From positions 124,001-188,000 of the forward strand of contig JABANP010000025.1 of the NCBI GenBank assembly GCA_013115135.1: a stretch of 64,000 nt of DNA, written 5' to 3'. The notes under the pieces were generated by a model that worked only from the letters and a program-made list of their open reading frames with translations, ran no database searches and was not told the DNA's origin. The position numbers were made by a program, and so were the translations under genes. Shown here piece after piece: positions 60,207-64,000 of the stretch; positions within the stretch are counted from its first letter, which is position 1, and each line of letters begins with the position of its first letter. The DNA comes from Perkinsus olseni (taxonomy: Eukaryota > Perkinsozoa > Perkinsida > Perkinsidae).

Positions 60207-63200
60207 TCAGCTTGACTGCACCATAGCCAGGTCGACAGACCAGTGCTTGCCAATGACTACTCCTGCCGGGCGTTTGATAGTTATGCGGTTCTCTGAAGTG
60301 GGGCTCCTCTTGGCGGAGATGGTGGGGTTGTCGAGAATGCCTGGGGAGGAACGACGAGGATAATTGAATCACTCGGCAACATTCCCGAGCGACGTGGATG
60401 AGAGTCACCAAGTGTTTTCTATGATCAAAAACGTGGATGAGAGCGTGAACTTTACACTCAACCTTGTGGCCCACGGCACCTCCCTCGCGAACTAAGCTCG
60501 AGGAGGTCTGTGATGTACGTATGATGATGTCTATTGTCAACGAGCAGTGGGCGGACCGTAGCAGAGGATGACGAACTTCTCACCTTTGCGGAGATTCTCA
60601 GGCAGCCCAATAATATCGATCCTCTCCACCGGTATACTGTAATCCCCCTTACCGGATATATCCGTACTGACGATGCTCTGACCATCGAATCTGCTTGAAA
60701 TAATGAGAAGAGAACTCAAACGAGGTTTCCAGGCACCTTATAGTGCTGAGAGTGTAGTCGCCACGATCGATAGTGTCCAAGCTAGTGCCATCATCAAGGT
60801 AACTAGAGGAAAGCATCGGGGCTCAATAAGGGGAGATGGGTCACGTACATCTCCCCTTCAGCCTTATTAGTATCAGGGTCCACGAAGACTTCGAGCGTGA
60901 GGGGGTCATTGACCATTGCCTTGGTGGAAGGGCGCTGTCGCATCTTCAACCTGACATTTAGTCCATAGGATGCCCCATAGTGTCGATCGGCGTCCTCCTC
61001 ACGGTATGATGCTGCCAGCACGATAAAAATGTGGTATGGTGTCCATGCTCACCGCGATGTTCTCGTTCATGCCCACCGCCATCAACTAACAGGAAAGTCC
61101 CCGTATCCCATTCCTGGAGAAGCGTACCTCGTCCCTGGCATTATACCACTTCGCTCCCGTCGGGAAGTAAACAGATACGTTATCGACGCCACTTTCCAAA
61201 ACTCCTGTGACCATCACATCTCGACCAAGCACAACCTACAGGCGGAGATCAACGGCCAGAGAACTCAACGATCCTCTACCTGGGAGTCCAATATTTTGTC
61301 GCATCCTTCCACACGACACGCGTAGGTATTAGCGTCCTTCAGGTGGTCAAACCACAACGGACGCAAGATGGCCTCCCCGTAGAGCGAGTAGCGTGCGAAG
61401 AGGGTATACCAGAAGGGCAGCATTCGGTATCTTAGCACGGGCACTAGTCCCTTCATTCCGATTGATGGAGTCCAGTATCACCGTTTTTGAACTGCCTCCT
61501 TGACACGGTTGCGAGCTGCCTCGCTATACTCCCACGGCTCCCTTCGCGGTGTTTCGATGTGAGCATGGGATCTGACCCCATCGCGTGGCGGATTCCAACA
61601 GCGGCTACTCTGGGAATCGACTTGCCTGTAGAACGGATTGGTGGCTGCAGCGAGCTGATGCCAGCGAGTAAAGAGCTCCTCCTCAGGGTGGCCAAAGAAG
61701 CCTCCAACATCAGCCCCGACGAACGAGTAACTGCGACGCGAGCATTCACCACCAACCACGGCAGCGCCCCAACCCGGCAGTTGCTGAGAGGGTGATGAGC
61801 ATCGGTAGCACGGCCTGGAGGTGTGCCCAGTTGGCCTCGTTATCTCCCGTCCACATCGGGCCATACCTAACGTCAGGGGAGGCTGACCATGACGACCGTT
61901 CCGGCGGCTCCGGTGAGCTACATGTGACTGCCAACGTAAAAGCTTCTGGTGAGGACGAATGGTCGTTGGCCTGGTCGACGGTGATTGGCGTGGCCCTCAA
62001 AGGTCGCCCTATGGAAGTACTGTCCATATCTGAGAACGCATCGAGTATGACTGACGGCAACCAGGTGTTCCACCGCGGCTGAGTTATCAATGCCTGAAGT
62101 GTGGACTTACTGTTCACTCTCATTTACTCGTTATTGCGTTAGTATTGAAAACGGGTGTCGGGTTCGAACCGAGTACATGTAAATTTTGCATTAGTATACT
62201 TCCGAGTTATACGAGAAAACGCGTCAAAGCAGCATGATGAATGAATGACAAAGCGCGCCGTAGCAATAGGCCAGCGAGTGGTTGAATGTGCATCCCAGTT
62301 CTCCCACATGTTGTGCACGTCTCGGTGCTCCACGTTCCCACTGTGTATCAAATCACGGTCCATAGACACCTGACGAGGAGGCTATGCCGACCACACTTCT
62401 TAGCTCTGTGCAGCCCTACCTCCGGACCATTGAAGACACTAGGCTCGTTCATGTCGTTCCATGTGTAAAAGCCTGCATTAGTTCCATCAGGCTTGGAGTA
62501 ACTACATCACCGGGAAGAGTGAACCCTAACGGAGGATATTCGTCTCATGATAGATGCTAATAGCATCCATCATGGATGAACATGTTGCGGTATTAATGTG
62601 ATACCCGTACTGATTGACGCGATAAGTCATAGTGTGGCGACAGAGGTGACTTGCAACACGCCGGGAAGCACCCTCATTTCGGCCTCACCTCGCCCACCAC
62701 TCGCGGACGGTTGAATTTGTGAAATCAGGGTAAACACTGGTGCCGGGCCAGCAGTGGCCACTGTAGACCTCGTCAGGCTTCTCCTTGTTCCATGTTGTTA
62801 TCTCAACACACAACTCATCCACACGAGCTCATCAAAGCCGCACTCGCCTTACCATCTTAGGCCTCCAGTGGCCGCTGTAATCGGGATTGGGTTTAGTAGG
62901 GAACCACCCATTCACCATCCTCATCATCATTCCACTCCTCAGGCTTCACCTAAGAAGAACGGCTATCCACTGGAAGGATCTGTCGAGCACTCACTGCTTC
63001 GAGGTCCAAGATGGTCTCAGTGTCGTTCCAATTGGCTGACACAAAACACCGTCCTGTACGCTACACGAATACTGAGCACCCTTGACGTGCCTCCAAGCCA
63101 GGCATCCCCTCAGGGACGCGGAGAATCACAGAGGGAGCGTCAGTGCCGCACATGAGAGGAAGAGGTGTAGACGATAGACATCACCTGGTTTCTCATCTTC

Positions 63201-64000
63201 AGGGTCGGCGATCATCTCGTACGCACGTTTCTTAACGAAAACATCTCTCTCGAGGCCTTCGGAGTACACAAAGTACCTAGAGAGGAAAACAAGGGAGCAA
63301 CAGCTGGTAACGAACACTTGGGAGCGACCGGCCGTCCTCAAGAAGACCCCCAGCCTTGCCAGTGATTTTCGACTCATCGGCCTCGAGATTCCAGCGTAAT
63401 CACGGCGTGCTCAAGACCACGAAGAAAGGTAAAATGAAGAAATATTCAGCCCACAGAAGAGCTGAGAGTGAACACGGTATTTACGTCGGCATCCTGTTTG
63501 ATATGCGGGTCCACGATAGTGACCATCTCGCGGCCGCCAGCTTTGAGCTCTTCCAGCATCTCTTTAGGGTGGGGAAAGTACTTATCATTCCACGTATGAT
63601 ACCTGAACTCGGCCATGTGGGGAGCCACTACCACACAAGGCCACTCAGAATTGCTTGCCCCCCCACCAAGTTCCCTAACGTCCGTGCAACGGCACTATTC
63701 GACGGCTGCAGCACTACTACCCTCATCAGAAGGAGGAGTGGTCGACAAAAAAAACGTAGGAAGAAGGGCTATACACGTAAACCGTACCACACTTCTCCTA
63801 CTTCTTATGGTCAGTATGCTCGATATCGAGCCAGACAACATCAACAGGAATATTATATTTATCAAAATTGGCCACGAGCTCCCGCACGTCGGCCTCGTCC
63901 TGAGAGCGGCATATCCAACCGCTCTAGCTCCCATGCAATAGCCAACCTTATAGTTCCACCGGCACTGGTGCTTCCCCAGGCTGAAGAGGGGAGGGAGAGG
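60207..64000 (-). CDS. GANAB: Glucosidase II alpha subunit (GH31) with embedded P-domain-like insert; 5' part outside window
   Basis: ER enzyme that trims alpha-1,3-glucose from N-glycans. From the right edge: SLGKHQCRWNYK, a 47-nt intron, DEADVRELVANFDKYNIPVD with VVWLDIEHT, YHTWNDKYFPHPKEMLEELK, VTIVDPHIKQDAD, EGLERDVFVKK, the insert (62854-63230), YSGHCWPGTSVYPDFTN, FYTWNDMNEPSVFNGPE (catalytic nucleophile Asp), HRDVHNMW, WTGDNEANWAHLQAVLPML, SFVGADVGGFFGHPEEELF, SHAHIETPRREPWEY, RYRMLPFWYTLFARYSLYGE with AILRPLW, VDNVSVYFPTGAKWYNAR, MRQRPSTKAMVNDPLTLEVF and a C-terminal ITIKRPAGVVIGKHWSVDL to TGA at 60209-60207. The whole C-terminal two thirds is collinear with animal GII alpha. One +1 frame offset lies in the insert (near 62898). 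Confidence 0.95.
62854..63230 (-). other. Calnexin/calreticulin P-domain-like insert within the GH31 catalytic domain
   Basis: Between FVKKR and YSGHCWPG the gene adds about 65 residues over four short exons: MIADPEDEKP, ANWNDTETILDLEA, VKPEEWNDDEDGEWVVP and, after a +1 offset, TKPNPDYSGHWRPKM, followed by EKPDEV. These match P-domain motif 1 (I-x-DP-x-x-x-KP-x-x-W-[DN]-[DE]) twice and motif 2 (G-x-W-x-x-P...NP-x-Y-x-G-x-W) once. Exon phases link the insert to GH31 exons on both sides. Confidence 0.82.

What the first reader, a model, noticed from the sequence alone, without database searches (positions are those of the whole stretch)
62854..63230. Glucosidase II alpha with a calnexin/calreticulin P-domain-like insert inside its catalytic domain
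Seen directly: between the GH31 blocks VTIVDPHIK...FVKKR and YSGHCWPGTSVYPDF, where animal GII alpha has only a few residues, the gene encodes IADPEDEKPANWND, ILDLEAVKPEEWNDDEDGEW and NPDYSGHWRPKM. These are P-domain type 1 and type 2 repeats. Splice phases (KP|A, EA|V, KM|E) connect them to the GH31 exons, and no other calreticulin part is present in the few hundred bases between. Known: glucosidase II creates and destroys the monoglucosylated glycan bound by calnexin/calreticulin, whose P domain recruits ERp57-type and prolyl-isomerase partners. Inference: this organism may tether a foldase directly to the trimming glucosidase, merging two steps of the ER quality-control cycle. I know of no described GH31 enzyme with this architecture.
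Basis: partly seen in the sequence, partly recalled or inferred. Interest (0 to 1): 0.92.

Follow-up and report, generated by a model that had tools for sequence, protein, structure and literature searches.

The report
Glucosidase II with calreticulin-like arm
A Perkinsus gene for an enzyme that trims sugar tags on newly made proteins also encodes, inside its catalytic domain, a piece like the arm by which the chaperone calreticulin holds folding helpers; if the piece is really made, one protein may join two steps of protein quality control.

Summary
The minus-strand gene (window 60207 to about 66154, past the window end) is a GH31 gene of glucosidase II alpha (GIIα) type; best solved relative: mouse GIIα, 422.6 bits. 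Where the mouse chain has three residues (407-409) it carries about 60 codons on three exons. They pass Pfam's Calreticulin cut-off (37 bits, E 2.5e-9) and match the rat calreticulin P domain (E 5.5e-10). Exon A runs from GH31 into the first repeat in one frame.

Correction: the type II repeat NPDYSGHWRPKM lies in another frame than the type I repeats, the only frame break in the gene model. Assembly error or real lesion cannot be told apart here.

The organism is a Perkinsus with genes for the glucosylation cycle, a standard insert-free GIIα and six diverged GII-like genes without P-domain insert. Best reading: a duplicated GIIα with a short P-domain-like arm beside its active site, probably docking a co-chaperone. 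Translation, folding and docking are inferred; other species could not be searched.

The parts
60207..64000 (-). GIIα-type GH31 gene (window part); the 5' part continues to the ATG near 66154 (C168:190154). Start MVLLFIALLPLIIA (signal-peptide-like, by eye), then VDKSKFKTCTQSSFCDRYR
   Evidence: spliced alignment to a recalled human GIIα with a rat P domain put in: 403 of 904 aligned residues identical, 29 introns, 0 stops, 1 frame break; ends; Pfam GH31 9.2e-95
63474..63602 (-). GH31 exon with GREMVTIVDPHIK (strand before the loop that holds the insert)
63185..63276 (-). exon A: YFVYSEGLERDVFVKKRAYE (GH31) running in the same frame into MIADPEDEKP (type I repeat 1, 63215-63185)
62995..63035 (-). 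exon B: ANWNDTETILDLEA (end of type I repeat 1, start of repeat 2); donor GCA|GTGAGT
62853..62949 (-). exon C, 97 bases: VKPEEWNDDEDGEWVV (rest of type I repeat 2 and tip), then in another frame PTKPNPDYSGHWRPKM (type II repeat); donor ATG|GTAAGG
62901..62901 (-). place of the reading-frame change, the only one in the gene model (approximate within a few bases)
62689..62780 (-). exon D as drawn: KPDEVYSGHCWPGTSVYPDFTNSTVREWWA, GH31 resumes; the acceptor drawn (62781) is poor and not listed; 62802, 62784 and 62769 are listed
62420..62501 (-). exon with GFYTWNDMNEPSVFNGPE (GH31 nucleophile motif; motif role recalled)
61774..61866 (-). exon with YGPMWTGDNEANWAHL (GH31 acid/base motif; motif role recalled)

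Best explanation
This is a GIIα-type glucosidase of the Perkinsus ER, the least diverged member of its local gene family, that gained a short P-domain-like hairpin arm in the loop between the VDPHIK strand and the CWPG motif of its GH31 barrel, beside the active-site pocket. The arm keeps two type I repeats, the acidic tip and one type II repeat, the part of calreticulin that binds ERp57-, ERp29- and cyclophilin-type helpers, but no lectin domain. Most likely it docks such a helper next to the glycan that the enzyme is trimming. Shown: gene, insert, homology, position along the chain, splice signals, family-level presence of the cycle in the genome. Inferred: translation, ER location, folding as an arm, helper binding, catalytic activity. 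The frame break in exon C is most likely an assembly error or a recent allele-specific lesion, because the piece beyond it still reads as a type II repeat at the right spacing.
For: GIIα identity: mouse GIIα 422.6 bits, best chain of a differently named GH31 enzyme (maltase-glucoamylase) 235.7; 183 of 341 catalytic residues identical to human GIIα (recalled sequence) with nucleophile, acid/base and N-terminal Cys motifs kept. P domain: type I half (exons A, B and first part of C) 37 bits in PF00262, type II piece 12.5 bits (under cut-off), exon D 26.7 bits in PF01055; one spliced protein with X at the break passes both families; rat P domain E 5.5e-10 with no gap at either splice joint, the gap being at the X. 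One gene, not two: exon A is continuous from GH31 into the repeat. Splicing: exon C acceptor and donor at percentiles 85 and 69; the donor that would avoid the break is at 5. Tip EDGEW equals the organism's own calreticulin tip. Context, by family hits only: ALG6/8, UGGT, GIIβ, ALG10, ERp29 D domain, Thioredoxin_6, glucosidase I. Tip binding of helpers: PMC7687155 (passages). Inserted subdomains of the barrel form part of the active-site pocket: PMC4742823 (passages).
Against: The frame break lies inside the insert and nowhere else in the gene model, which is what a non-coding or decaying insert would show. A model of the gene without the P part needs no frame break at all, though it scores lower (1225 against 1316) and reads exon A in another frame. 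No transcript. No orthologue examined: the protein database was switched off. The tip lacks the Met of MDG. Type I repeats are imperfect (6 of 9 motif positions each, by eye) and there is one clear type II repeat, so the arm is not a symmetrical set of pairs. A standard GIIα without insert exists (C366), and the six array genes lack it.
Confidence: 0.5

Rival explanations
1. The frame break is real: the insert is decaying or the allele is a pseudogene, so no full arm is made; the product is truncated in exon C or the arm is lost by splicing.
For: The only break in a 29-intron model lies in the insert; a standard GIIα at C366 could cover the function. Skipping exon C alone keeps the frame (phases 0 and 0).
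Against: The rest of the gene has no stop and keeps catalytic motifs and sits on a short branch (0.17); the type II piece past the break still scores 53 against a shuffle maximum of 37, so any break is recent. In the same alignment five of the six array genes need 1 break each and one needs 3, while C366 needs 0, so single breaks here may also come from assembly or alignment error; equally, some array genes may be decayed.
Confidence: 0.27
2. The insert is real coding sequence but the arm has another role: a flap shaping the glycan pocket, a contact to the beta subunit, or calcium binding, with no co-chaperone.
For: The tip Met is replaced (against PMC7687155); the inserted barrel subdomains form part of the pocket (PMC4742823); another family member, p237, has a different cysteine-bearing extension in the same loop, so the loop tolerates additions.
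Against: The part kept is the tip half that binds helpers, and its EDG tip equals that of the organism's calreticulin.
Confidence: 0.15
3. The enzyme is a GII-like paralogue working outside the quality-control cycle, and the arm serves that other job.
For: It goes with a tandem array of six diverged GII-like genes: 12 to 14 shared intron positions with each, against 1 with C366; the array is a clade at 100/99 in a 9-row tree.
Against: The window gene itself keeps GIIα motifs including the N-terminal FKTCxxSSFC segment and is about as close to human GIIα (183 of 341) as C366 is (189 of 344), the array genes less so (147 of 337 to 159 of 340).
Confidence: 0.05
4. Assembly chimera: calreticulin exons misjoined into a GII gene.
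For: The frame break; only one assembly could be seen.
Against: The insert differs from the one calreticulin gene found (44% over the matched part, E 0.088; different intron places); exon A fuses both parts in one frame; the introns between the pieces (149, 45 and, by acceptor, 51 to 84 bases) are of ordinary Perkinsus size (39-1622 bp, PMC3101222 passages).
Confidence: 0.03

Closest known systems
ER glucosidase II alpha (GH31; mouse, PDB 5f0e; Chaetomium, 5dkx)
   Same: Whole-length GH31 architecture, catalytic motifs, N-terminal Cys segment, signal-peptide-like start
   Different: About 60 extra codons of P-domain type where the mouse chain has three residues between the two aligned stretches, 406 and 410
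Calreticulin/calnexin P domain (PF00262; PDB 1hhn, 1k9c, 5v90)
   Same: Type I repeats, acidic tip, type II repeat, Lys/Trp core residues, spacing
   Different: No lectin domain, 2 type I and 1 type II instead of 3+3, EDG tip, hosted by a glycosidase, frame break in this assembly
Standard GIIα of the same genome (C366:8.5-13.1 kb)
   Same: GIIα family, catalytic motifs
   Different: No insert, 13 introns in the model, 1 shared intron position with the window gene
Six-gene GII-like array C168:197.9-237.7 kb
   Same: 12-14 shared intron positions with the window gene
   Different: No P-domain insert (61-87 bases between the matched flanks in five, 201 with another extension in p237), diverged loops

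Membership tests
GH31 glucosidase II alpha | GH31 barrel over Pfam cut-off, GIIα closer than other GH31 | tested here: met
   PF01055 9.2e-95; mouse GIIα 422.6 bits against 235.7 for maltase-glucoamylase
GH31 glucosidase II alpha | nucleophile WNDMNEPS and acid/base GDN motifs (roles recalled) | tested here: met
   YTWNDMNEPSVFNGPE, WTGDNEANWAHL
GH31 glucosidase II alpha | N-terminal disulfide segment (Cys39-Cys45 in Chaetomium, PMC4742823 passages) | tested here: met
   VDKSKFKTCTQSSFC aligned with the human segment, same Cys spacing
GH31 glucosidase II alpha | ER signal peptide | tested here: inconclusive
   start MVLLFIALLPLIIA read by eye, no signal predictor run
GH31 glucosidase II alpha | beta-subunit partner and Glc2/Glc1 trimming activity | not testable with these tools
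   a GIIβ-type exon exists (35.8 bits over 44 of 154 profile positions); activity needs the bench
Calreticulin-type P domain | profile match over Pfam cut-off | tested here: met
   37 bits, cut-off 25, type I half; 36.1 bits in the spliced protein
Calreticulin-type P domain | type I motifs IxDPxxxKP(E/D)DWD (PMC7687155 passages) | tested here: inconclusive
   two imperfect copies, IADPEDEKPANWN and ILDLEAVKPEEWN, each 6 of 9 fixed positions by eye (sequences)
Calreticulin-type P domain | equal number of type II motifs GxWxxxxIxNP in the same frame | tested here: not met
   one clear type II repeat with the Ile missing, in another frame
Calreticulin-type P domain | MDG tip | tested here: not met
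   EDG; the genome's own calreticulin also has EDG
Calreticulin/calnexin protein | lectin domain around the arm | tested here: not met
   only one PF00262 stretch, P-domain part
Calreticulin-type P domain | binds ERp57/ERp29/CypB-type helper | not testable with these tools
   candidate partners by family hits: ERp29 D domain (31.9 bits, 47 of 95 positions), two Thioredoxin_6 places

The most novel reading that the evidence does not exclude
A Perkinsus glucosidase II carries its own co-chaperone docking arm, so trimming of the last glucose and recruitment of a disulfide or prolyl isomerase happen on one protein: a glycosidase that acts as its own 'calreticulin without lectin', taking glycan recognition from its active site.
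Probability: 0.35. Interest if true: 0.9.

Novelty: new variant of a known kind. Interest (0 to 1): 0.7.

Why it matters
P domains are described for calnexin, calmegin and the calreticulins (PMC7687155, passages). A P-domain-like arm inside a glucosidase would show that the co-chaperone dock can move between proteins of the same cycle, and gives a natural test of whether trimming and foldase recruitment can be coupled in cis. The listings (titles and starts of abstracts) of searches in an open-access library showed no paper on such a fusion; papers under other licences were not searched.

Tried and rejected
Two separate genes: rejected, exon A carries both parts in one frame. Chance or composition: rejected by profile score and shuffles. 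Insert copied recently from the genome's calreticulin: not supported; similarity to it (164) is no higher than to rat (167), and intron places differ. A splice route that avoids the break (donor 62907) loses the type II repeat and uses a donor at the 5th percentile. A route that removes the insert: the good donor at 63226 is phase 1 in the GH31 frame while the AG sites near exon D are phase 0 or 2; the only in-frame pair that I found by hand (63222 with 62761) has both sites weak (14th and 3rd percentile). The alignment to human GIIα without the P part did draw one intron over the insert, 63226 to 62802, with no frame break, but by reading exon A in another frame. Limits of the model: the N-terminal third is poorly conserved, one 22-base 'intron' (64389-64368) is below known Perkinsus sizes, and several N-terminal introns are guesses. 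The genome search with PF00262 did not report the window insert itself, so it can miss short exons, a calnexin's included. No structure prediction was run: the tool takes sequences read letter for letter from the DNA and the spliced protein is not.

Full report
What is there. The window is C168:124001-188000 of a 61.5 Mb, 968-contig assembly. The finding lies in a minus-strand gene that leaves the window at its right end; I fetched the rest. A spliced alignment to human GIIα (recalled) with a rat P domain put in its loop gives 29 introns, 403 of 904 aligned residues identical, no stop and one frame break. The protein would start MVLLFIALLPLIIA-VDKSKFKTC and end near window 60207. The model is firm in the catalytic and C-terminal parts and loose in the N-terminal third.

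The host protein. The catalytic part matches mouse GIIα with 422.6 bits in two stretches that end at residue 406 and resume at 410 of the mouse chain. Pfam on the spliced protein (X at the break): GH31 barrel 9.2e-95, N-terminal domain 1.7e-19, C-terminal domain 5.3e-16, Calreticulin 4.7e-9, DUF5110 below cut-off. Nucleophile and acid/base motifs are kept.

The insert. Searched in parts: exons A, B and the first part of C give PF00262 at 37 bits (cut-off 25, E 2.5e-9); the type II piece alone gives 12.5 bits (E 0.07, under cut-off); exon D gives GH31 at 26.7 bits. Against solved structures the joined insert (X at the break) finds 11 sequences at E up to 10, all calreticulin, calnexin or calmegin, best the rat P domain (E 5.5e-10), with no gap at either splice joint and one at the X. 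Shuffles: 0 of 2000 reach the score to rat, and 0 of 2000 the score to own calreticulin; 0 of 5000 base shuffles reach the type II score. 5 of 5 shuffled peptides and 2 of 2 insert-free GH31 queries (C366 part; p230 part) give no Calreticulin hit, and the genome's own calreticulin P domain gives 95.8 bits.

The frame. Exon B's donor and exon C's acceptor and donor are good for this gene family (percentiles 84, 85, 69 of 86 training introns); the exon A donor (27) and exon B acceptor (23) are below the middle; the exon D acceptor cannot be fixed. Without a break allowed, the best path with the P part drops the type II repeat through a poor donor, and the path without the P part has no break but a lower score and another frame in exon A. 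Because the type II piece still reads well, the break is recent or not real. I cannot decide between the two without reads. In the same alignment five array genes need 1 break each, one (p213) needs 3 and C366 needs 0; p213 also shows a frame change in the matching exon.

Family. The genome search for the GH31 barrel gave 28 matches, a lower bound, all on C168 and C366, which I read as eight genes: the window gene, six in a tandem array at C168:197.9-237.7 kb, and C366. None of the seven others has the P-domain pieces (loop sequences seen for 7 of 7). The array shares 12-14 intron positions with the window gene; C366 shares 1. In a tree of the 8 genes and human GIIα (9 rows) the array is a clade at 100/99 and the window gene lies outside it on a short branch (0.17), with C366 and human beyond (unrooted, midpoint drawing).

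The cycle. By family hits the genome has ALG6/ALG8, the UGGT catalytic family PF18404 at 9.4e-137, GIIβ (35.8 bits, part of the profile), ALG10, glucosidase I (GH63), an ERp29 D domain (31.9 bits), two Thioredoxin_6 places and calreticulin. PF18404 and GH63 also ring in 2 and 3 of 14 prokaryote controls and Thioredoxin_6 in 1 below cut-off, so these names rest on family membership, not on orthology tests. Calreticulin-family matches at E up to 0.001 are on C42 only, so no calnexin was seen; the same search missed the window insert. The own calreticulin has three type I and three type II repeats and the tip EEEDGEW; the insert has DDEDGEW.

Mechanism. [quoted passage not shown] The insert keeps that Asp and Gly, the Trp after it, and the Lys/Trp core. 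In Chaetomium GIIα two subdomains inserted in the barrel form part of the active-site pocket (PMC4742823, passages); that the insert lies in the first of them is my inference from order along the chain. So the likeliest role is docking a helper beside the glycan. Inferred, not shown.

Literature. A P. marinus EST paper mentions two alpha-glucosidase ESTs and does not contain the words calreticulin or calnexin (PMC2868825, passages). No held paper contains both Perkinsus and 'glucosidase II'.

Verdict. A real and unusual architecture at gene level, with one unresolved break and no cross-species test. New variant of a known kind.

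Noticed in passing
C168:197900-237700 (L028-L033): Tandem array of six diverged GII-like GH31 genes on the opposite strand, next to the window gene; loops around the active site differ (e.g. LHSDIHSPQRDPW for AHAHLDTGRREPW). p213 needs three frame breaks and has CNDMNGPS for WNDMNEPS, so it may be decayed.
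   Followed up: partly
L033:1064-1405 (p237): The array member p237 has another, cysteine-bearing extension (KERYFCNLDTCDEPVSNLGG...) in the same GH31 loop, so this loop may be a hot spot for added sequence.
   Followed up: partly
C366:8500-13100 (L034): A conventional GIIα gene without insert, 13 introns in the model, no frame break; its N terminus is not fixed by the model.
   Followed up: partly
C42:103136-103885 (L006): Only calreticulin-family gene found; P domain 3+3 repeats with EDG tip instead of MDG; no calnexin seen at E 0.001, in a search that can miss short exons.
   Followed up: partly
C268:216790-235713: Many spliced-leader sequences in a row, often in pairs 164-165 bases apart that recur about every 1.75 kb; other runs on C41, C270 and C871.
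   Followed up: no
C113:47254-47400 and C113:39269-40344: An ERp29 D-domain exon and ALG10 matches lie about 7 kb apart on one contig.
   Followed up: no
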